Shown in pieces: positions 43,306-61,859 of a DNA stretch of 64,000 nt (position 1 is its first letter; the number at the start of each line of letters is the position of its first letter). Source of the stretch: Coriolopsis trogii (Eukaryota; Basidiomycota; Agaricomycetes; Polyporales; Polyporaceae); NCBI GenBank assembly GCA_020543525.1, contig JAHYIO010000033.1:496001-560000 (forward strand), given 5' to 3'. The notes beneath the pieces are model-generated. The model saw nothing but the letters and a program-made list of their open reading frames with translations. It was not told where the DNA came from and made no database searches. Both the position numbers and the translations under genes were made by a program.

Positions 43306-44860
43306 CTACCACAGACCCAAGCGAGCGAGCAACAACGCCGTGCCCTCTCTGAAGCCCCTGAAACCCTCCACGGGTCCACTCCAAGTAGCCCACGAAGGGA
43401 CGATGACGGTCTGCCGGCCTCCGCGGACGTTGGACCGCTGCGAATAAGCATCGACAGCGAAAAACTCGTGGCTGGCGGCGTTCATGACCGCTTCGGCGGG
43501 GGAGGTCCTCGCGAGCTGTTCCATCGTCTGTACGGTGTATGCGTAGTCCCCCGTCCCGCCGTTCAGCACGAAGTGGGTGGACTGTCGGAGATGCAGCAGG
43601 CAGTGAGTACGCCAGATGCGATTGGGAGAAGAGCCTTGAGCGCGGGCAGGGCAGGGCTCGAACGCACCTCGTGCACGATGGTGGACCCGCCGGACTTGTA
43701 GCCGTAGAGAGGGGTCCTCGCCCGGTCAAAGTACCTCGGGCACAACGTCACGTTTCCGAATCTATTATTGGGGGCGTATGATCAGCACACGGAGGTATGA
43801 ATGCGCCTAGGCAGAAATGGGAGGAGCACGTACGCCGTGGCGTCCACATAGGCGATGTAGCGAGTGTCGGCATCGCATATCCAGCTGCCGCAAAAGTAGT
43901 TGTACTCGGAGTAGTCGTTCGCGACGATGTTCTCGAAGTGTGACAGCGTCGTGGAGAGCCTCTCGGCACTGCGGGATCCGAACCAGCGTCGGTAGAGGTA
44001 GCCGCGATCACCTTCATCTTTGAGCTCCCTATGGGCAGCAAAGGCGAGGATCGGTTGTCAGCTGCTGTCCGAGTGCACAGAAGGATAAGGGAGGCGACGC
44101 ACTGTAGACCAGCATGAGCGTACTCTTGGGCGACCGAGATCGCTTGGTGGATGGCGACTTTTTGCCAGTCGAGACAGAAACCTTCATCGTCCGCCATGGC
44201 GAGTTCAGTCTTGCGGGCTGAGACCACCGTCTCTGCGACGTCAAAGTGGTGGACGGCCACGTGCACGGGTGCGACTTGAGTGATCTGTCCTGCGACGAGG
44301 ACGTGCAGAGGTCGGGCATCCCGCATCATAACGTTGTATGGCCCAGAGCCGGACGGGGAGAAGTCGTATGCCTGGAGAACTGGGGAGAGCTTAGGATATG
44401 TAGAGGAGTGGTACACTCTACACCAGACGTACGAAGATGGTGCGTCTTGACCGACTGACCCGGGACCAGGACTATGATGGCAGGGTCGTCTGCGTCGTCG
44501 ACGGACTCGACGGATACGTCGTCCGCGTAGCTGATCTGGGGGGAGAAACCTACATAAGTCACGACCAGATGGATTGACAATGGAAGGCCAATACACCTCG
44601 ACACCGACGAAACGCGGACTTTGGTCGTTCAGAGAGTTCCAGATGTTAAACATGTTCGTCGGGGCCGTAGACAGCGGACTGCGAGGATGTCTTAGTAACT
44701 GCACGACATCGGGGCCAATATTGGTGATGGTGGTATCGAGATTGAGGTCGTGCGATCGCTGGACCACCCTGGGACCCGAAATGTGGAGAAGGAGTTGTGG
44801 GGCTGCAGAGGCGAGAGCGAAGAAGGCGAAGAGAAACAAGAGGGAGGAGTGTTGCGCCAT
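43306..44860 (-). CDS. Secreted M35 metalloprotease (peptidyl-Lys type)
   Basis: Six exons: complement(43306..43581, 43668..43761, 43834..44028, 44103..44379, 44433..44535, 44597..44860), 402 aa. A signal peptide is visible (LLFLFAFFALASA-A). The N-terminal half is the propeptide-like beta domain of deuterolysin-type enzymes (VLVPGQSV, then AYDFSPSGSGPY). The catalytic part has the zinc motif HESTH at residues 310-314, created by splicing at 43668/43581, and the aspzincin motif GTGDYAY at 320-326, where Asp323 would be the third zinc ligand. These features fit M35 enzymes such as peptidyl-Lys endopeptidases of mushrooms. The C-terminal about 50 residues after HEFFAVDAY are longer than I expect, so the last exon end is less sure. 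Confidence 0.87.
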
Positions 44861-44907
44861 GGTCTACGAAGTTCAATACTCTGGGTTTGGATACACTCGC
44901 TCGGAAT

Positions 44908-45549: not shown

Positions 45550-47625
45550 TCAAGCTTCATCAATCGCATGCACTAATTTCTCTGCGGCAGGAGACCTGAA
45601 GGAGATCTGGCAACTGAACGGGACCGGATGACTACGGTGGTAATACAGCTTGTCAAACATGCGAAGAAGTAAGCTTCCAGGAAAGTGAGTCTCACCAAAC
45701 TAGAGAGGACGTGACCTCTACTACGGGCCACACCGGCCGTCCAATTTCGTCCTTCTCAGGCTTGATGTCAAAGACATGCAAAATGGAGGCTACGCAGATG
45801 AAGATTGTCGCATTGCTGATGTCGCGTCCTGGACATATTCTTGTCATGTACGATCAACACATAAGTTGTGTCGACTTCATCATTCCATGCACGCACCTCC
45901 GTCCAAAGCCAAATGCTATGGTATTAGGGTCCCTCACCTCGGAGTTCAGAGACCCATCTTTGAGGAATCGATCCGGGTTGAACGTCCCCGGGTCAGGATA
46001 CTCGACGGGGTCATGGAGCATTGCCCTGATATGACATGCAGTGTTGTAAGCGATTGGGTGAGTACTGACAAGATATATTCCTACCACTGGTTGGCGAAGA
46101 CGATTGATCCCTTCGGGATATAGTATCCAGCGTATACGTCTTCCTCGCTAGTTGCATGAAATGCACCCAGAGGCGTCACGGGCAGCCAGCGCGTGCATTC
46201 CCTTACAAGTGCCTCGATGTAAGGGAGCGAGGGACGGTCCGCAAATTCGGGCAGTCTACCATGTCCGACGACTGAGGCCAATTCTGCTTGTGCGCGTTTC
46301 TGCACATCGGGATAGAGGATCATAGCCAAGTAAAAAGTCATCAACGTTGAGATAGTCTTGCAGCAAGAAGTCAATTCGGTATCTCTTGAGCATACTGGAT
46401 AGAATGCGACGCACCGTATCGCTCCCGGCTGTCCAATTGGATCCTATGAGAGCATGATCGACTGAGTATGAAATGAGACCACTCACCACCGTATACAACA
46501 GAAGCACAATTCTTGGCTATTGTCTCCTGCTCGTCGTAATCCGCACCTTTCAGATGGCCTATCTCGTCCAGCATCTCCGTTAGAAACGAGGATTGTGCGT
46601 CACCCTTCCTCTGTTTCGCTCGCATAAGACAGACTCGATAGGTAACATACTATGACATACCATCGCATTCACAACGTCGTTGAACGGTTCATTGACGGAT
46701 GCATCGAGACTGTCCTGCCAGGATTGAATTTGACTTTTGAAGTGCGCTCCAGGAAACCAGGAGGGGAGGTAACGCAGGAACGGGATGTATTGGACGAGCA
46801 GGGACCCCGGAAGAAACATTTGTGCCAGGGTGTCCGCAGCCTTCTGGGCGAGTTGGACGTATCGCTGGGTAGTCTTCCTGTCATGGGTGCCGTATGTGAG
46901 ATCCAGAAGAACCGTAGCGACAGCACTAAATATGAGAGTGTTAGGACTGTCTAGTTGACGCGAGAGAATCAACCCACTGTGCGCTATGTTGAGCAAGTCG
47001 GGTCGGCTCGTCACGGAGATTACGTAGCAGCTCTCGAGCTTTCTGCTGTTGGACTGGTTCGTATGTTCTCGCTGCTGAGGCATTACAGTATTTGTGAAGC
47101 ATGCGACGATGCTTTCGCCACCGAGATCCGTAAGGCATGAGTGGAATGACCCAACTCAAGTCCAGCCTGTGAGTGAAGCCAAGATAAGCATACCAAATCA
47201 CATGAAACGATGTTGGACCCGGCGAAACACACATTGAAAGCATAGTGAGACTTGGTCGGTCACTGTACATGGCCGAACGCGTATCGAGAAGATCGAAAGC
47301 AACCGTTGGCGAACTCAAAATCACGATGGAGTACCGGAAGGCTTGGAGATGCATGATGGGGCCTATGGCCGAACGGAAGCACTGTCAGCACTGGTTCAAA
47401 GTATGTGAGGATAGTCGTGTGATGCATACCATATATCTTCGCCCATGCAGTGAACTGCTTCCACGGATGAGAGGTCGCAAGATGCGGCACGTTCCCAATG
47501 ATAGGCAAAGGAAACGGACCGGGAGGGAGATTGCGAGCAGCTTGGCGCTTGCATTGGTACGCCCAAGCAAGTGCGCATCCAACGATGCAAACCAGCGCGA
47601 TGCTAAATGGAGTCGTCGGCAGCAT
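45550..47625 (-). CDS. Cytochrome P450 monooxygenase
   Basis: Ten exons: complement(45550..45631, 45696..45839, 45897..46025, 46085..46356, 46415..46443, 46487..46610, 46661..46925, 46978..47166, 47233..47362, 47430..47625), 519 aa, the usual length of a microsomal P450. An N-terminal membrane anchor (SIALVCIVGCALAWAY) is followed by the proline hinge NLPPGPFPLPIIGNVP. Oxygen-binding I-helix: AGSDTT, straddling a splice junction. K-helix: ECTR. PERF-like segment: FNPDRF. Heme loop: FGFGRRICPG, with Cys447 as thiolate ligand. All catalytic motifs are intact. The substrate is probably the terpene scaffold made by the neighbouring synthase (inference from position). Sequence style recalls the CYP clans expanded in wood-decay basidiomycetes. 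One exon is only 29 nt. Confidence 0.93.
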
Positions 47626-48045
47626 AGTGGTGTAAGAGTTGCATCCGCTGCTTGCTCCGCTATTCCATACCTGAATCCTATATGCGCGCGCGCGGTATTC
47701 GCGGTCTACGCCCGGGCGCAGTTCGACGGTTACCGGAGAAGACTCGATGAGCGGCTCGTGTGGTAACGCGCGCGCCAGAACGCGGTGATGCTCTCAGAAC
47801 TTCTCTGAACCCTAGATACTGAGACAAGAGGAGGACGTCATAGAAGGTCCTGAGCACAGTCAGAAAGTCCGTAGCGGCCGCAGAAAGGATATTAGATGCT
47901 GATGAACGTCAAGATCCGGAATGCAGAATAACATAAGAAGCGCGAGCTCGAGAGTAATAACTTCCTACTGGATGACAATAGGGCGGAGCGTCCATGAATA
48001 GGGACGACAAATCAAACCCTATGAAGGGGTGTCCGGTGAGCGGCA
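47626..48045. other. Spacer between P450 and esterase genes
   Basis: This 420-bp spacer holds the P450 promoter and the esterase 3' end, both on the minus strand. No gene is seen. Confidence 0.55.
47677..47683 (-). promoter_or_regulatory. Possible TATA box of the P450 gene
   Basis: ATATAGG on the coding strand lies about 55 bp upstream of the start codon at 47625. Confidence 0.35.
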
Positions 48046-49339
48046 CTACAAGGTCTGCACCCATACACCAAGCTCCTTCAACACATCAGTTCTCTCAGGA
48101 TCGTGCCAGTCTACCATCAAGAAGTCATGAAGAGCATCTGGAGGCTCGGAGAACATTATCTGCTCCTTCCCGTTGTCCGCGATCAACCGATCTCGCACGG
48201 TATGCATGGGGTCAAGGGTATACTCCGCACCGCCTGCCACGATGAAGGTGGAAGGGAACCCAGAGAACATGCCCGGTACCCAGTCTGCCTGCAAGGATCC
48301 GGGAGAGAGCCACGAACTTTTCGCTGCCATCTCCTCTGGGAGCTTGCCTACAAGGGCACGTCTCGTGTAACCACTCTCCAAGATAGCATGCACGACGTCC
48401 GAGCGAGAGTTGCGCTTCATAGACGAATCTGACCCCGTGTGAGTCTGAGCCCAGTCCATCGTTGGCGAAAGCAGGATGACCCCGCCCGGCTTCGGCAGCT
48501 GGGCAAGACCGGCGGACATGATGTATCGTACCAAATTGAATGCGATGCCACCGCCTGCGGAGTCACCGGAGATGATGATGTTGCGCGGGTCAAACCCAAC
48601 GTCGTGCACGAGGTAGCGGTAGCCGGCAATGGCGTCAAGGAGTGAAGCGGGGAAGGGGTTTGCGGGTTCAAAAGGAGGCGCAGAGGATATGCGGTATTCC
48701 AGTGCAAACATGCGCAGGTTGGGCCCAAGATGTTCCAAGTAACCTTTGCACAGCACCATGATCCCAGACTTGGGGTGCGCGGAGCCCATCTGTAAGATGT
48801 TCATTCCAGCTCCTGCAAGTGTCAGAGATCGGGAAAGGCTCACCACATGCCCACCACCTAGATAGATGGATCATCAGCATAGGGTGCGGAGCACGTAATG
48901 TTTGACACTCACCGTGCAAATGATACACGACTTTTTGCCCCGGAGACGCGCGTTGTCCAACGTTGCCGCTAGCGTCCCGAGGACCATACCAAAACCCGGC
49001 CGTACGCTGGGCTACGACGCCGTTCTTCTCGGCGAGCTCCCTGATCTCGCCCACAACAAGGTCCGGGGTCGCGTCCACCCATACGAACCCGAGCTCCTTT
49101 GCATCGCGCTCGTACCGTGACAGGGGAGTCGGCGGGGAGAGAGACGTTTGAAACATCAGGTCGATGTACGTTCGCGCGACCCGAGCAATAAGAGCGCGTT
49201 TGAGAGGCCATGTTTTGCGAGGACGAGCTGGAGGAAAGGCGTCGATAACCAACCACACCGGAAGTGCAGCCAGCATGTAGACCACACCACACAGGGTGTA
49301 GAGAGTGTTGAACGGCTGGTGTCTGAAGGCGAAAGGCAT
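48046..49339 (-). CDS. HSL-type alpha/beta hydrolase (esterase)
   Basis: Two exons, complement(48046..48857, 48913..49339), 412 aa. The N-terminus has a hydrophobic stretch (TLCGVVYMLAALPVWLVI), probably a membrane anchor. The oxyanion motif HGGG (residues 142-145) is completed by splicing. The nucleophile elbow is GDSAGG with Ser242, and a C-terminal PDALHDF supplies the likely catalytic His. These are the hallmarks of hormone-sensitive-lipase-type carboxylesterases. An in-frame Met 16 codons upstream (49387) is possible; I prefer 49339 (MPFAFRHQP) because related fungal proteins begin this way. It is codirectional with the P450 (420 bp) and the terpene synthase (827 bp). It could remove or rearrange acyl groups during terpenoid tailoring, but a general lipid esterase role cannot be excluded. 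Confidence 0.88.
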
Positions 49340-50166
49340 CGAGGAAACGGGAGGCACTAGGGCCACGAGTGAACTTTGAAAGGGCATTTAAGACTCACTG
49401 TGGGCTCGTCTGATGTTCTCATTCGCACGATCCAATGCTTCGAAGCCTCAAGGACCATAACGCCATGAGTGCGCGCCTCATCACCACAGTCAGAGGCCGA
49501 CCGGACACATTGGAGGCATAACTGAATCACATCCAACAAGTTGAGCATTGAGAAAAGATGGTGTATACTTGTTCGTGACGATGCGAACTCGCAGAGAGAA
49601 TAGTGGTCGTAAGGAGGACACGACCATGGACAAGTCGGCGGGAAAGACTGTCGCCGCAACAGCGCCGGAGCTGAGTCAGCAGGTCCCACGCCTTCCGGCC
49701 ATGCCTGGATCATGAGAATCTATAGTCTCCGCTCCTATTGTGTGTGAGGACGGAATGCGACCAGACCGTCCTTTGCCGTCCCTTGTGGCCACGAGAAGAC
49801 GGTCCGCGGATAATCCTATGCTACAGCAGCGGACCAAGCAGCGGACCAGCCAATCTCTGAAAATGTGACGACTACGCCTCGGGCTTCTTCTCTACAGCCG
49901 CTTCCGCCGCGCACGAGCAGCGTCTTCTCGAAACCGCGGAGCAAGCTATGTACTCCTTTCGAGTCCTCCATAACGACGTGACTTGGACTAGTCCCGCCTT
50001 CACGCCCCATTCAGCGGCCCAGTCAAGGTCGAGGAAGTGGTCGAGGATGGTGTACGTGCGGGCACGTCCTACCACACTTGCTCGCAGCTGTGCGACTACT
50101 AGTAATGACGGACTGGTGAGTACTCAAACACGCACACTCGGCTCATACGCTATTTCTGAACGGATG
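49340..50166. other. Spacer between esterase and terpene synthase genes
   Basis: It contains the esterase promoter and the terpene synthase 3' end. I see no additional gene. Confidence 0.5.
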
Positions 50167-51417
50167 CTACAGCTTGACAGTCGGTCGTGTCTGAGGTAGA
50201 AGTTCCACCACTCTCTCCCGTTGTATCCGTGATCCCTGAATCCCGAAGTATCTCCCACTTTCAAAGTTCCAGCAATCATTGGCACGAGGCCAATTCATGA
50301 GGTGATCGAGATAGAACCTCAAGTCCTCGTCCACCTCAGGTGAAAATGTCAGAATGAGAGCCTGAGACCACAGCGCCAGGACGTGATCAACGCGTTCCTT
50401 GTGCTGTGCCGCAATCCATCTCAGGGCCCCGTCGAGGTCCAGTTCATACTCGTACATTGCGATCGTAACAATGTTATGAGCACTGTCCCCAGCTGCCTGT
50501 TCCTTGTTGTACGACGCGAGGTCCTGTCAAGTGTCAGATCATTATATGGTGAGCTCAGTAATAAATCGGGATCCACTTGAAACTCACATTGTCGTAGATT
50601 ATTATGTCGGCGATATCCTTCCGCAGACTCAGGACCAGCGGATGTTCGAGAACCTCTTGGGGTAGGTTCAATCCCAACTCCGCTATTGCGTACGAAGGCT
50701 CTGCGCCTATGGTGAACCTCCGAAGTGACATGTGCTCGTCTATCGTGCGCAGGCGTCTTTGATCTCGATCCTGGGCCTGCTCCACAACAGAATCCGTGTA
50801 GTCTTCCCATGCCCGCTCAAACCGGGGGCGACCTATAGGTGTGGCGTGCTGAATAGCGCGATTCCAGAGCCTAACATGACGACGTGACTCTTGTGAGTAT
50901 GGACGATTGGATGACCAAAGAGTAACATGCAGCTTACTGCCTGGTGATCTCCCCTATCAGGGACTCTCCTTCAGGTCGTGGATCGCATGGATTTCTGATC
51001 GCATCCATGGAGATGTCGGCAAGCACCCTCGTTTGCGCCTCATCCAGAGCGTCAGTGTACTCGTCGAATACGAAGAATAGATGCATAATATCGCATGCGG
51101 TTCTGTATTGTTCTTCTTTGGCATTAGTGTTGCTTAAGTAGCGATCGTGACAGGGCTCACCTCTGCTTAGAGTGGGATACGCAAGACCTGCTAGCAGGCC
51201 TACACTCAGGTAAGAAAGCAATTCATCGACTTTTAGTAGGTGGTGTTGACTTACCAAAATTGCACAAGTCGTGCGCCCTTTGTGCTGCAGGATCGAACGC
51301 ATGGAAGTCTCTGAACCACTGCGCAGACTCCTCCGCTACCTCGCCATAGTATGGGGATATGCGGCGAGGTAGAGGCCAATTGGCCATGGTCTTAGGCAGA
51401 TGTAACACTCCAGTCAT
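50167..51417 (-). CDS. Class I sesquiterpene synthase
   Basis: Five exons: complement(50167..50523, 50588..50870, 50938..51115, 51161..51199, 51255..51417), 339 aa, normal for fungal sesquiterpene cyclases. The family start TMANWPLPRRISPYY is clear. Metal-binding site 1 is D85-E-Y-T-D89, the usual basidiomycete variant of DDxxD. Site 2 is the NSE triad N221-D-L-A-S225-Y-N-K-E229, assembled across an intron. A C-terminal RY pair (NFESGRYFG) would contact the diphosphate. The enzyme should ionise farnesyl diphosphate with Mg2+ and cyclise it in the cytosol; the product cannot be predicted from sequence by eye. A second in-frame Met 22 codons upstream (51483) is an alternative start. The 45-nt intron 51116..51160 has a textbook CTAAT branch site. 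Confidence 0.93.
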
Positions 51418-52343
51418 TACCGGCGTGTTGGGTGAGTGTTGTGTTTTGTTCCTGCTCGGTATGGCGCAATCCGTACAGCTCATGGGAGCTTTATTCGCTG
51501 ACCCAGGCGCTTTCAGGATAGCCCCTCATCGGACGGTGCCCCCATAGTAGTAGCAGGCGCAGTCACCGATTGGCTAAGGGCACAGTTCGTACTGCTCTAT
51601 ACTTGGTTGTTCTTTAGTCCGTATCAGATTCAGGTGGCCATGGACCGACGAACCTGTATTTGTGCTATGCTCTCGCACTGCGCCCGTCATCACGCTTCGG
51701 TGCGGATATCACGGCGGCAGTATCCTGGGTTTGCCTTTGAAATGTGAGTCTTACCACTGTGCGCTTCCATTCGTAGACATAGGAGCGCAGCGAACTGTTG
51801 TGTTTGGCAGATGTCCGTCTATCATCGTCTTGGTTCGCGCTCAAGAAGTCGAAGTCCGCAAGAGATGTGGACCCAGACGGTTCGTGCGTGTCAGCATGCA
51901 ATCTCCGTTTCATCGGAGGAAGTTGGGTATGTGATTCATGAGTACGTCACTACAACGCCCACCGTTCCGAACATGTTCTTTCTATGCCGCTGTGGGCGAG
52001 TGCATCCCGCAGAGGGATCTTCCCGGCACATCGAATGCCGATGATAGCACGGAGGGAGTTCTCATTCCTACCCTGATGTTCACCTGTGGTGTGATACTTC
52101 ACGTTGCGCTCGAGAAGCTCGTAGAATTCATGCGGCGTGCGGCGATAGCAGGTCTCGGATAAATTTCCCCGGCCGAGCGCGTAAGCTGCGGTGAAACAGA
52201 GCGCGCCTTCAGCGCGCAGTTGCACAAACTATCACTGACGCATAGTCTGCTGTCCGGTCGCATATCTCACTTCACGCCCCGCCTGACACACGACGAGTAA
52301 TTACGACCATGTAGTGGACAACATCCATGATATTCTGACTCAT
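51418..52343. other. Spacer between terpene synthase and acyltransferase
   Basis: It contains the terpene synthase promoter (TATA-like CTATACTT near 51.6 kb) and the acyltransferase 3' end. Short frames here show no known domain. Confidence 0.45.
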
Positions 52344-54226
52344 TTACTGTCGCCCGACCATGAGAATCAAGCGCACAATTTCTCGCATGTAATCCTGGAG
52401 AATATCCTCGTCCCAGTTATCCGTTGCCTAGTAATCGCAGATGAGCAGCACTGAAGGATGCTTCAGACAGACCGGACGCACCTGCATCTGCACGACCAAT
52501 TGCCCGTGCATCGTCCATATATGTATCATCCTAAGTCGCTGTGAGTCAGATGTGGAAGATGCAATGACGTGAATGTACGCACGGCGTTGGCAGCGTTATG
52601 CGGTGCCCAAAGTGCAATCCTCCGACTCTGAAGAGCGGCGGCAGGTCCTGTCGAGCACCTCCAGCAGTATGTTCTGGCCATAGAACCGGGAGAACGCCCT
52701 CGACGTTGCCAAGGTTCGAAACGGTTGATACGTAGGGGTTGGCCATGGGCATACCCTCTCGTGGAGGGGCGAGACGCATTTGTTCTGCCATCAGCTGGGG
52801 TGTGCACGGATTTCCAAGATACTCGGCATATTGTTCCTTCAGGCTTTCCATCGCTACTTGGAGTCGCGCGTTTTCGTCAACGAGGTGTGAGACGTCCCTC
52901 CATCGCACAGTCACTGGAACGAGCACCATGCGAGATACGAATCCGCTCTTCTCGCGATGCGGGGAGACGACATTTCGAGCGATGGAGATTCTGAAATATC
53001 ATCTGCTCAGTTGAATGGAAGGAAACAGATAGAATCGCTCGTGCTTACACGCTACTTCCATATGTGATATGAGCCTCGTTGCTGTCGTCCGGGGCCACCG
53101 GGTTGAGGTTGTACGTTGCAATAGCAACCGCTGCGTGCATGAGATGGGTAAATGTATAGCCTTGCTTCTTGAGCACCTCTTGTATGGCACCTGTCTCGCC
53201 TCTGGTGAGTTCTACGATAACTCTTCTAGGTCGGCCACGGCATGTTACATCGCCGAGGTTAATTCGCAGACTATGAGGAGGCTATATAGGCATGTCAGTG
53301 ACTATCCGTATGCGTCCAGGGCATTGAACTACCGTTGGATTCCCATACGTGGCAGCAATCTTGGCCAACAGAATCTTGCCGTCGACATCCCACTCAGGGC
53401 GGGCCCCTCCTGTCGACGTGATCGGTCCTGCAGGTAGATTTTCCCATTCAGATCCCCATGGAAGGTCCATGACGTCGGGGAGTTCGGTAGAAGACATGTA
53501 TTGGAGGAGCAGCTTGAGAGCGACCATCGTTGGATGCGCATCCATGAGTGCATGAGTACCGTGCATGAAGATGCCAAAGGCGTTCAACGCGCTGGTCGGA
53601 CGAATGAGGTAGACACGAAGATGTTGAGAACGGCCATCCGGGAGGGTGTAAGGGAGCTTCGATGCATTCATGTTCTGAATGAACTGAGAAGGATCGACAG
53701 GGTCGTCCAGGACAATCAACGTTTCGGACACCCAGGTTTGCAACTCTTCGGAGTTGTGAACGGGAGAGTAAACCCACGAACGGAGCTGGGGGTCATGGAT
53801 GCCTTGCTGAAGCGAAGCGGCTGTCAGAGGGGCAAAGAACCTTCACAACCTTGAGATTCTTCTGTTGCACCGCACCAGAAAAGAAGACGTACCTCAGGCG
53901 AGCGAGGGCTAGCCTTACTGCGACGCAGACCGCTCCTCTAGTCAAGGTAGAAGTGAACGTGATGCCCATACAACACTCTCCAAACCTGCATGGAATGAAC
54001 ATCTCGTACACACCGGAGAAATATGCGTGGCTCGAACTCACCCATCTCCCGAAAGCATGACCTGATCCGCAAATAGTTCTGAGCCAAGCAGCGGCCTGCG
54101 CGTATGACTCGGATATGAAAAGAGATGCAATGTGTTGGCATGTGAAACCCGTACTGACCTGCTGTAGAACATTTTGGATGGTTCACCTGTAGGAGATTCG
54201 TGGAGAGTCCACTGCGCTTCCTCCAT
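52344..54226 (-). CDS. HxxxD acyltransferase, probable CoA-dependent
   Basis: Eight exons: complement(52344..52427, 52482..52530, 52583..52990, 53049..53281, 53333..53840, 53893..53985, 54042..54095, 54159..54226), 498 aa. The catalytic motif is H168-A-L-M-D172 (in FMHGTHALMDAHP), the HxxxD of condensation-type and BAHD-like acyltransferases. The N-terminal RPLLGSELF and ALARLRF segments and the C-terminal HFGHRITLP with WTMHGQLV match a fungal family related to trichothecene-type O-acetyltransferases. The DFGW motif of plant BAHD enzymes is not seen. Expected reaction: acyl transfer from acyl-CoA to a hydroxyl, here plausibly one introduced by the P450. It is the upstream-most of four codirectional genes; its promoter lies in the 2.2-kb gap to the 7-TM gene. 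Confidence 0.86.
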
Positions 54227-56484: not shown

Positions 56485-58038
56485 ATGGCCTCCACTGTCA
56501 CGATTCCACCATTGAACAAGGTTTTCCTCGTTGGTCTCTGGACTGAGACTGCTCTATGGGGTACGTTCCACCGTCCCTAGGCTGTAGCAACACGACTCAC
56601 TTCATAACATAGGCGTCAAGTATGGATGTCACTGCTAATTAGCGACACTGATGATACTGACATAACTATTGGCCTTTAGTAACGTGGTGTTCATAGCCGT
56701 GTGCTACGTACTCTTCTGGAGGCCCAACTCGAGGACCAGCCGATGGTGCGTTCAATGCGACTATCTGCCGAAACACATGTCTCACCGCCGCACTACTCAG
56801 GGTCCTTGGTATCACCTCCCTTTTGTTGTATCTGTGCGCTACTTTGCACGTCGCCGCTGCTTTACGGCAGGGGCTAGAGGCATTCATATATGTCCCATCG
56901 GATGCCCCTCCTCAATACGCATCGCTCTACTACGCACAAGAAGGTTCGAGTCTCGCCTCAATGAAGAACTCCCTTTACACCACTGCGGTCTGTACTACTC
57001 ATCCGTTCCTTCGCCGAATCTCCGAGTGCATGAACTCATACTGTATCTCTAGGTTTTCATTCAGGACCTTGTTCTGGTGCATTTGCAGCATGCCATTCTA
57101 TCAAGTGGTCATGTATCTAACTCACACTCAGATATGGCGGATGTACATGGTGTGGGGACGTGACTGGAGAATCATTGTCATTCCGGTAAGCATTGTATCC
57201 GGCAACTTAGTCTATATATGAATCCACTTACGTTCTCGTTCTCTCAGCTAACTGTTGAGCTGGTGCACATTGGTGAGAGTGTCCGCTCTTGGCCTAGGCT
57301 ATCTCGCTTCTAATTGCTGTGTACTCCATTCGACAAGGGTGCGCGTACGCTGCGGTCATCCTCCTTACGAAGCCCGATGCAGGCATATATTCCCCTGCCC
57401 TCAGCAGGTTGGGCTCGCTGGGATGGCCTCTCGAACTGGTGGTGAACATATGCGCGACAAGTGCTATCGCCTCGCGACTCTGGTACATGGGTCGCAGATT
57501 GTCAAAGGCGGGTTCAACCAACTCGACAACTGTCGTGTCCCAGCGAAACGCATATGTTGCGCCAATCTTCACCATTGTCGAGTCGGGAGCGATTCTTGTC
57601 GTCTTCACCATCGTCATGCTAATACTCTACAAGACGGGAAATCCAGCGGCCCTCATGTGCACCGACATCGCTATTCAAATCGCGGTACGCCCCTCATATG
57701 ACTATGAGTACAGTGGCTGATCCTTTCGTGATACAATTTAGGCCCTCGTCCCATATCTCATCATCGTCAGAGTTGGTCTCGGGCTCACTCATGGTCTTCC
57801 CTCTGCGTACAAGTCCTATGTCGATAACCTCGCTACCACGACGGCATCCGGGGGTGGCATGAACTTTGCACCAAACCGTATTTTCTGGAGATCGATAGAT
57901 AGACAACACTCGCATGCCAAGGTCAATGTGTCGGAGACGGTGATCTCCACCGCCTCTACGGACCGCATTGCGTTGTCCGAGTTTGAGGCCCGCATGGGAT
58001 CGAGGGAGACAGTCAAATGGTCCGGCCCTACTGTTTAA
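56485..58038 (+). CDS. Seven-transmembrane protein of a basidiomycete family
   Basis: Nine exons: 56485..56560, 56613..56619, 56680..56745, 56801..56987, 57053..57076, 57132..57185, 57248..57272, 57338..57684, 57742..58038, about 360 aa. About seven hydrophobic helices are visible, among them NNVVFIAVCYVLFW, VLGITSLLLYLCATLHVAAA, VFIQDLVLIWRMYMVW and FTIVESGAILVVFTIVML. The pattern, including IWRMYMVW and a TxAIASRLWYMGRR loop, matches a large uncharacterised basidiomycete membrane family. The C-terminal tail is hydrophilic. Exon 2 has only 7 nt and supplies Gly-Val-Asn. Function is unknown: a receptor-like or transporter-like role is possible. It lies between the terpenoid genes and the adenylation gene. 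Confidence 0.8.
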
Positions 58039-59453: not shown

Positions 59454-61859
59454 ATGCGCGTGGGTATGAATAGAACCGCCCGCACGGCCTCCGAGTCAGC
59501 TTCAGCAACAAATGTTCCGAGCAACCTCGTTCGCATGCTAAGTCAAATCACCTTCTCGATGTCTCAGATGGCCGCAGTACTAGATGTGAGTGTCTGTGGT
59601 TCCCACTGATCTGATGATGATTGCAGAGTGCATCGGAAGACTGCTCAGCGCTGCTCACAACGTCACGCCGCACTCCTTGGAAATATGCATGGCCAAAGAC
59701 CTGCGGGCTTCTACCCAGCAGCATAACACCGTCTTGGGCTACTGTCGCCAACCCCTCTACCTCGATCGCTTTGACTGCAATACTCGCCATGAACTCCATC
59801 CTGTCATGCGCCATCTCCGTCACTTTGGACAATGTGCGCAAACTGGCGTACGATCTAGCTTCTCGTATTTTCCTCTATGCATTCCAAATCTTCGACAGTC
59901 TCAACGTGAGACACAATCATCCACCACTCCGCCATGGTGCTGCCAGTGCTAGCAAGCCGTCCCTCTCCCATGTCAACACTTTGAGCTTCAATCCACGAGC
60001 TCTCTCAATCACTCATGGCACCGACACCCATCTCGAGACCCGTCTTTGTATTCACGCCTATTTAGGACTCCACGCATCGACGCACCCTACCGTGCTCGCA
60101 GTTCAAGATACGTATGGCCAGCAAATGACCTATGGCGAGCTCCAAGACAGGTCTACCGTCCTTGCGCGGAGTCTACACACCCTCGGAGCACGTCGTGGTA
60201 CCCGGATTGTCCTGATTATCGAGAGATCCATCCCTCAAATTATTGCCATCTTTGCTATCTTACAACTTGGAGCTGCATACATTCCGCTGGATGGCGCGTT
60301 GTGTCCCGAGTCGTCGCTATCGGAGGTAATCGATGACGCTCACCCCGTTCTCATCTTGAGGTCGAGAGCTCACTCGCCTCGCATGAATACCTCGAAGCAT
60401 GTATGGCTGTGTATCGAGGATTTGCTTGAATGCTCCACCGCGACTTCTGTCTACCAGGGCGATATAGAGACAGCGTCATCGCAGGATCCGGCGTACATCA
60501 TTTACACTTCAGGTGAGTAGTTGCCACATAAACTGCGTAGCTCAAGAACGCAGCTGACTTCGAACACGTTAGGGACTACAGGAAAGAGCAAAGGTGTAGT
60601 TGTCTCTCACGCGAATGTGACCAATCGTACGTCCCATGCGCGCCCCTCTTTTATAGTGGGAGAACTCTGATAATTTGCCAATACAGTTGTGTGCCAGACC
60701 CCCGGCAATCTAGGGGTCACACTCGGGACGAGAGTAGCGCAGCTATTGAACGTCGCATTCGATATGTGCGCATGGGAGATCTTCAGTTGTCTTCTCAATG
60801 GCGGCACACTTTACCTTCGAGGACCTCGACGTGCGGACTGGATAAAAGTGATGAAAACGGTGCACGTCATCATTGCTACCCCGTCAATTCTGGAAAGCCA
60901 TGATCCCGTCGACTATCCCAATGTCCAAGTCGTGGCAACAGCCGGGGAGCCATGCTCTCAACAACTCGCTGATCGATGGGCAAAGCAAGTTCAATTCTAC
61001 AACTGCTGCGGTCCAACCGAGGTATGTTCTGAACCGTTGACCGGGCGTTGACAGTCTGAGGTAACTTGTCAGGTAACTATCGTGAACACGATGCATCAAC
61101 ATATGTCTGGGGCTAAGAACAACATCGGAAAGCCGACACCGAACAACTCAGTATATGTCTTGGACAGCAACCTTAAGCCTCTACCTCGCGGACAGATTGG
61201 CCTAATGTGGGCAGGAGGAGCCGGTGTTAGCTTAGGATATCTGAACCAGCCTGGCCTCACAAATGAACGCTTCAAGCCTGACGTGTTCCGAGGAACAGGG
61301 TAAGTGAGCTTATCACGCCACATGGATACATTGTCTGACCTGGTACGATACCAGCATGATGTACAACACCGGTGACCTCGGACGAGTTCGGGACGACGGA
61401 AGTCTCGAACACCTGGGTCGCATCGACGACCAAGTGAAAGTTAAGGTGCGGGTCGCGCTACGTCTCAAAGCCGAGCGTCAGGCTATATGTTTCTCAGGGC
61501 TTCCGGGTCGAACTCGACGGCGTAGCCGCTGCTATGCGAACTTGTCCCGGAGTACTGTCAGCGTGTGCGCTACTCATCGGCACGGAGCTCTGCGGTTTCT
61601 ACACCCCAGTCGCCATACCCGATTTGAAAGTCAAAGAAGCCACAGCCCTATCGCAGCCGTTCTACGCAGTACCATCGAAACTCATCACCCTCGAAACTCT
61701 ACCGCTGACAAGGTGACCCACCTGTCCATCCATTGTTAATAATATGCTCATGGCACGCTTCCATGTCCCTTTTTCAGTAACGGCAAGATTGACAAGCGCG
61801 CTTTGCGGGGCATCATTACAGGTGATACAGTGGGGCACCGGGGCGGCAGTTCGATTTGA
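59454..61859 (+). CDS. Stand-alone NRPS-like adenylation (AMP-binding) protein
   Basis: Eight exons: 59454..59585, 59627..60512, 60573..60626, 60687..61021, 61073..61299, 61355..61445, 61498..61712, 61778..61859, 673 aa. A weakly conserved 180-residue N-terminal part precedes a complete adenylation domain. Motifs: MTYGEL (A1/A2 region), TSGTTGKSKG at 338-347 (A3), NCCGPTE at 463-469 (A5), YNTGDLGR at 548-555 (A7), a GRIDDQVKV/GFRVEL core (A8) across an intron, and NGKIDKR at 648-654 with the catalytic Lys (A10). The domain should activate a carboxylic or amino acid as acyl-AMP. The frame stops 19 residues after A10, with no carrier, condensation or thioesterase domain. Either the protein is A-only, or the coding continues from a donor-like GTGATA at 61822 into exons I could not find. 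Confidence 0.88.

What the first reader, a model, noticed from the sequence alone, without database searches (positions are those of the whole stretch)
45550..54226. Candidate sesquiterpenoid biosynthetic gene cluster
Four codirectional, apparently intact genes lie next to each other: P450 (Cys447 heme ligand), HSL-type hydrolase (GDSAGG), class I terpene synthase (DEYTD plus NSE) and HxxxD acyltransferase. The combination implies a hydroxylated, acylated sesquiterpenoid. I cannot tell by eye whether it has been described.
Basis: partly seen in the sequence, partly recalled or inferred. Interest (0 to 1): 0.85.

Follow-up and report, generated by a model that had tools for sequence, protein, structure and literature searches.

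The report
Conserved polypore sesquiterpenoid gene cluster
A wood-decay fungus carries neighbouring genes that very likely build a hydroxylated and acylated terpene; three of the four appear to travel together in related fungi, so this looks like a real, apparently uncharacterised natural-product gene cluster of a familiar kind.

Summary
Four intact, intron-bearing minus-strand genes fill 45550-54226: a P450 (519 aa, heme Cys447), an alpha/beta-hydrolase (412 aa), a class I terpene synthase (339 aa) and an HxxxD acyltransferase (498 aa).

Two limits. The hydrolase is not shown to belong; in G. adspersum the tags leave no annotated gene between P450 and synthase. The scaffold is open: the synthase lies in clade III, in one clade with a protoilludene synthase (identified by motif) and a Ganoderma protein named linalool/nerolidol synthase.

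Verdict: a conserved, apparently uncharacterised basidiomycete terpenoid cluster with a Tri3-like acyltransferase; a new member of a known kind.

The parts
45550..47625 (-). Cytochrome P450, 519 aa, 10 exons (47625-47430, 47362-47233, 47166-46978, 46925-46661, 46610-46487, 46443-46415, 46356-46085, 46025-45897, 45839-45696, 45631-45550); heme ligand Cys447; hydrophobic N-terminus; core cluster gene
   Evidence: homologues on contigs that carry a synthase; orthologue clade SH-aLRT 100
48046..49339 (-). Alpha/beta-hydrolase (hormone-sensitive-lipase type; Abhydrolase_3, Say1_Mug180), 412 aa, 2 exons (49339-48913, 48857-48046); HGGG, GDSAGG; hydrophobic N-terminal segment; membership of the cluster unproven
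   Evidence: six other matching places in the genome
50167..51417 (-). Class I terpene synthase, 339 aa, 5 exons (51417-51255, 51199-51161, 51115-50938, 50870-50588, 50523-50167); DEYTD, NDLASYNKE, RY; clade III of mushroom sesquiterpene synthases; core cluster gene
52344..54226 (-). HxxxD acyltransferase with Tri3-like fold, 498 aa, 8 exons (54226-54159, 54095-54042, 53985-53893, 53840-53333, 53281-53049, 52990-52583, 52530-52482, 52427-52344); core cluster gene
   Evidence: fold shown on the D. squalens homologue P0121

Best explanation
This is a small terpenoid biosynthetic gene cluster of a polypore fungus, with a conserved core of terpene synthase, P450 and acyltransferase. The synthase ionises farnesyl diphosphate (inferred) and makes a hydrocarbon or simple alcohol, most likely by the 1,11-cyclisation typical of clade III (humulyl cation to a protoilludene-like tricycle; inferred, about 60%). 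The P450, with a hydrophobic N-terminal anchor, adds a hydroxyl group (inferred from its family). The acyltransferase then esterifies that hydroxyl from acyl-CoA, most simply acetyl-CoA, using His168 and Asp172 as in Tri3 (fold and motif shown, reaction inferred). The hydrolase, probably membrane-anchored, would, if it is part of the pathway, remove the acyl group again, as Say1-type sterol or Tri8-type deacetylases do (recalled precedents; inferred, weak).
Against: No expression or product data. 5 of 11 acyltransferase rows share no contig with a listed synthase: G. sinense, Galerina marginata, Gymnopilus junonius, and two rows on contigs of about 4 kb that cannot tell. No acyltransferase row was seen for G. 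adspersum or Mycena sanguinolenta. In Gelatoporia the linked synthase is a partial model outside the window's clade and its closest P450 is on another contig. In the careful tree the window synthase pairs with the C5 paralogue, which has no such cluster (98/90). The hydrolase has no linkage evidence.
Confidence: 0.8

Rival explanations
1. The core cluster is real but the synthase makes an acyclic alcohol (nerolidol or linalool), so the product is a hydroxylated, acylated linear terpenoid rather than a cyclised sesquiterpenoid.
For: A Ganoderma lucidum protein at 63% identity is named linalool/nerolidol synthase (P0003); in the careful tree it groups with P0033, a G. leucocontextum synthase on the same contig as two acyltransferases and a P450. 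Two Auriscalpium clade III enzymes make nerolidol (PMC10608071 table).
Against: The name's experimental basis was not found. The closest solved enzyme is a protoilludene synthase (9.7e-92) ahead of the Agrocybe linalool synthase (8.1e-62). P0019, which carries the motif pair listed for Trametes TvSTS07 (protoilludene), lies in the same 100-supported clade, though in its other main branch. P0003 and the window protein are not one-to-one orthologues in that tree.
Confidence: 0.3
2. Only three genes are a cluster; the hydrolase is an unrelated neighbour that came to lie between P450 and synthase in this lineage.
For: G. adspersum locus tags of P450 and synthase are consecutive. Six other places in this genome match the hydrolase, the nearest about 62% identical on C7.
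Against: It is codirectional and tightly packed between two core genes, and a Say1/HSL-type esterase beside an acyltransferase makes chemical sense. A missed gene call in G. adspersum is possible.
Confidence: 0.5
3. The four genes are neighbours by chance and serve unrelated, partly housekeeping roles.
For: P450s, esterases and synthases have many other matches in this genome; flanking genes that could be named are ordinary (ELMO, TOR, Sos7, F-box).
Against: Repeated linkage of three of them in five species, one contig being only 44,454 bases (Obba) and one 142,798 (Dichomitus); the acyltransferase is rare and single copy.
Confidence: 0.04

Closest known systems
Delta6-protoilludene synthases of Agaricomycetes (clade III; Dendrothele bispora K435DRAFT_659367, PDB 8H72; Trametes TvSTS07 by motif)
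   Same: PF19086 family, DExxD, NSE and RY motifs; best solved relative (9.7e-92); P0019 lies in the same well-supported clade
   Different: The window synthase lies in another branch of that clade, with unknown product; P0019's identity with TvSTS07 rests on the motif pair alone
Fungal linalool/nerolidol synthases (Agrocybe Ap.LS, PDB 8GY0; PMC7890063, PMC11740858) and the named Ganoderma lucidum protein P0003
   Same: Same enzyme class; P0003 is 63% identical and in the same clade
   Different: The characterised Agrocybe type is more distant; P0003's name could not be traced to an experiment
Tri3 trichothecene 15-O-acetyltransferase (PDB 3FOT, 3FP0)
   Different: Window protein misses the Pfam Tri3 cut-off (15.2 of 23.5 bits); 10 of the 11 listed relatives carry basidiomycete names and one has none (placing them is general knowledge); substrate unknown
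Pleuromutilin cluster of Clitopilus passeckerianus (PMC4855138, passages)
   Same: A basidiomycete terpenoid cluster that joins a cyclase, P450s and an acetyltransferase, so the plan has a proven precedent
   Different: Diterpenoid; seven genes; its acetyltransferase has 377 aa and is described as TRI7-like, not Tri3-like; sequences were not compared here
Basidiomycete sesquiterpene clusters with P450 (Cop6/Cox1/Cox2 lagopodin; omp1 with a P450; PMC8594250 and PMC5468996, passages)
   Same: Synthase beside P450
   Different: Those passages name no acyltransferase acting on the terpenoid

Membership tests
Class I fungal sesquiterpene synthase, clade III | PF19086 above cut-off with DExxD, NSE triad and RY | tested here: met
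   168.9 bits against 23.7; DEYTD at 85, NDLASYNKE at 221, RY at 312
Class I fungal sesquiterpene synthase, clade III | Groups with clade III enzymes | tested here: met
   Best solved relative is a clade III protoilludene synthase; a 31-row clade, SH-aLRT 100, kept at 100/100 with 32 rows in the careful tree, holds P0019, TvSTS07 by motif. Beyond that, only two characterised sequences were put into the first tree, and clades I, II and IV were not sampled
Class I fungal sesquiterpene synthase, clade III | 1,11-cyclisation of FPP | not testable with these tools
   Needs product analysis; two relatives point to different products
Cytochrome P450 | PF00067 with FxxGxRxCxG heme motif, ExxR and I-helix AGxDTT | tested here: met
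   E 1.9e-70; FGFGRRICPG at 440, ECTR at 364, AGSDTT at 307
Tri3 (PF07428) acetyltransferases | Pfam score above the curated cut-off | tested here: not met
   15.2 bits against 23.5 for the window protein; 9 of 12 aligned members match at E 0.01 or better, best 2.1e-9
Tri3 (PF07428) acetyltransferases | Tri3 fold and HxxxD catalytic motif | tested here: met
Hormone-sensitive-lipase type hydrolase, Say1_Mug180-like | PF07859 and PF10340 above cut-offs, HGGG and GDSAGG | tested here: met
   63.7 against 25 and 41.1 against 21 bits; motifs at 142 and 240
Terpenoid biosynthetic gene cluster | Conserved linkage of synthase with tailoring genes | tested here: met
   Synthase, P450 and acyltransferase rows share contig lengths in five species; adjacency is shown by locus tags only for P450 and synthase in G. 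adspersum
Terpenoid biosynthetic gene cluster | The hydrolase is a conserved member | not tested
   No protein search was left for it; indirect sign against in G. adspersum
Terpenoid biosynthetic gene cluster | Coexpression and a shared product | not testable with these tools
   No transcriptome or metabolite data

The most novel reading that the evidence does not exclude
Acyltransferase and membrane hydrolase form an acylation/deacylation switch on a clade III sesquiterpenoid alcohol: the ester is the masked, self-safe form and the Say1-like hydrolase releases the active alcohol, a basidiomycete counterpart, reached independently, of the acetyl protection logic of trichothecene pathways.
Probability: 0.12. 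Interest if true: 0.6.

Novelty: new member of a known kind. Interest (0 to 1): 0.42.

Why it matters
Mushroom genomes hold many terpene synthases without known end products. A small core that stays linked across several polypore genera, including Ganoderma, suggests that its ester product is worth keeping, and its rare Tri3-like acyltransferase gives a clean marker for finding the cluster elsewhere. It also makes the question of what these clade III synthases of Ganoderma and allies do testable with a three-gene expression experiment.

Tried and rejected
Chance neighbours: disfavoured because three genes recur on same-length contigs. Displaced heme cysteine: the unspliced reading shows RRCVHG and looks broken, but a 57-bp intron restores FGFGRRICPG. 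Neighbouring NRPS-like gene as a cluster member: an amino-acid adenylation domain lies on the plus strand at about 60-61.7 kb, divergent from the acyltransferase and with another frame between; its conservation was not tested, so it is left out. Product assignment by name: the entry P0003 'linalool/nerolidol synthase' could not be traced to a paper.

In print: among the titles and abstract starts listed by nine searches of the held open-access library none describes this cluster; two searches returned nothing; most listed papers were not opened, and most subscription papers are not in that library. One paper may touch it: PMC12617850 reports 27 antiSMASH terpene clusters in G. adspersum and synthases that group with those of G. 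sinense, G. leucocontextum and D. squalens (passages), so the G. adspersum version may already have been predicted there. and one search were made to find a precedent (pleuromutilin). Papers seen: PMC10608071 abstract, outline, passages and the whole tables section; PMC7890063 and PMC11740858 abstract, outline and passages; PMC12617850, PMC5468996, PMC8594250 and PMC4855138 passages; all others only as search listings.

Not pursued: the third and last protein search went to the P450, so the hydrolase's homologues were not sought. A fused query to cover both in one search was considered and not made, as it would go round the cap.
Full report
WHAT IS THERE. The four genes exist as described. Reading the minus strand in three frames and joining exons at GT-AG sites gave four complete proteins: P450 519 aa (47625..45550), alpha/beta-hydrolase 412 aa (49339..48046), terpene synthase 339 aa (51417..50167) and acyltransferase 498 aa (54226..52344). 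Introns are 43-67 bp. The unspliced P450 frame looks as if the heme cysteine were displaced; a 57-bp intron splits the motif.

FAMILIES. Pfam places the synthase in PF19086 (1.5e-49), the P450 in PF00067 (1.9e-70) and the hydrolase in PF07859 and PF10340 (steryl acetyl hydrolase); the acyltransferase reaches only Tri3, PF07428, at E 0.0086, under its cut-off. The synthase's best solved relative is a Delta6-protoilludene synthase (8H72, 9.7e-92), before 8GY0 (8.1e-62), which PMC11740858 names as the Agrocybe-type linalool synthase ApLS (passage).

LINKAGE. The protein search gives no genomic context, but lists the longest contig of each cluster. Synthase, acyltransferase and P450 rows agree in Dichomitus squalens (142,798), Ganoderma leucocontextum (258,181), Daedaleopsis nitida (3,641,072), Obba rivulosa (44,454) and Gelatoporia subvermispora (1,486,382). 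G. adspersum has P450 and synthase (320,351; consecutive locus tags V8D89_008915/008916), with no acyltransferase row seen; Mycena sanguinolenta has a synthase and two P450 rows (2,476,725), again with no acyltransferase row; G. sinense has a synthase (P0011) and a weaker P450 row (P0231, 39%) on one contig and its acyltransferase on another. In all, 6 of 11 acyltransferase rows and 12 of 120 P450 rows share a contig length with a listed synthase row; the first 7 P450 rows (6 species) all do, against 5 of the other 113 (the cut was chosen after seeing the list; one of the five, at 1,630 bases, is a likely coincidence). As a rough guide, a random gene would fall on a 258-kb contig of a 46.7-Mb genome (size from the listing of PMC10817607, for one strain) about once in 180. 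Against: the acyltransferase rows of G. sinense, Galerina and Gymnopilus share no contig with a listed synthase; the unnamed row P0127 and the partial D. squalens row P0129 are on contigs of about 4 kb and cannot tell; only 120 of 169 synthase hits and 120 of 3,902 P450 hits were listed.

IDENTITY PATTERN. Window against D. squalens: synthase 66, acyltransferase 66, P450 64%; G. leucocontextum 66, 60, 66; Daedaleopsis 65, 57, 56; Obba 64, 48, 51. Acyltransferase and P450 fall off together, while the synthase identity barely changes. The P450s of the first three species and of G. adspersum form a 100-supported clade with the window's; the Obba one lies in the neighbouring branch with Gelatoporia proteins.

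WHAT THE SYNTHASE MAKES. A quick tree of 123 rows places it in a 31-row clade (SH-aLRT 100), kept in a careful tree of 43 rows (100/100); going by the names, which I know as Polyporales from general knowledge, its members are polypores and allies. In that clade P0019 of Trametes versicolor carries DEQTD and NDLLSYRKE, the pair tabulated for TvSTS07, a Delta6-protoilludene synthase (PMC10608071). P0003 of G. lucidum is named linalool/nerolidol synthase; in the careful tree it groups with P0008, P0025 and P0033, the last on the G. leucocontextum cluster contig. The table also lists clade III enzymes that make pentalenene, nerolidol, gleenol and iltremulanol, so clade alone does not fix the product. 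The window synthase's sister row is a paralogue on contig C5 of the same genome (98/90). Within the fetched 20 kb around it neither the acyltransferase nor the P450 search matched (83 of 328 P450 candidates were scored); of the frames there only two were scanned with Pfam, a HET-domain and a DUF6535 frame.

THE HYDROLASE. It is intact, has a hydrophobic N-terminal stretch and its active-site motifs, and could deacylate the product. But six other places in the genome match it (best about 62% on C7), and the consecutive tags in G. adspersum leave no annotated gene between P450 and synthase. Its membership is a coin toss.

SURROUNDINGS. ELMO-domain frames lie to the left; TOR lies beyond the window's left end and Sos7 and F-box frames beyond its right end. 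Between acyltransferase and window end there are a membrane-protein-like frame and an amino-acid adenylation domain on the plus strand. The 23 PF19086 matches in the 38.8-Mb genome group into about 14 places, a lower bound.

PRECEDENT. A basidiomycete terpenoid cluster that combines cyclase, P450s and an acetyltransferase is established: pleuromutilin of Clitopilus passeckerianus, whose Pl-atf (377 aa) is described as TRI7-like (PMC4855138, passages). The plan seen here is therefore not new in kind.

VERDICT. A genuine, conserved terpenoid cluster with a three-gene core; a new member of a known kind. What stands out is the rare Tri3-like acyltransferase that appears to travel with a clade III synthase across polypore genera. 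No description of it was found in the searches named under Tried and rejected.

Noticed in passing
window 59621-61716, + strand: Frames of an amino-acid adenylation (NRPS-like) domain, TIGR01733 1.6e-24 and 2.1e-14, about 5.5 kb from the acyltransferase and divergent from it.
   Followed up: partly
window 56697-57720, + strand: Two overlapping hydrophobic frames that look like a multi-pass membrane protein, without Pfam match in the parts tested.
   Followed up: no
window 43748-44863, - strand: Frame with a signal-peptide-like start; it recalls the N-terminus of M35 deuterolysins (from memory), but Pfam gave no match.
   Followed up: no
G000 C5:96353-97605 (L026): Closest paralogue of the window synthase (about 65%), with no P450 or acyltransferase match in the fetched 20 kb.
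   Followed up: partly
Ganoderma leucocontextum contig of 258,181 bases (P0002, P0033, P0122, P0128, P0132): Two synthases and two acyltransferases on one contig suggest a duplicated cluster in Ganoderma, one synthase akin to the protein named linalool/nerolidol synthase.
   Followed up: partly
G000 C17:16272-17727 and C20:1053401-1054883: P450 matches with the same scores and identities on two contigs, as from a duplicated or haplotype-redundant stretch.
   Followed up: no
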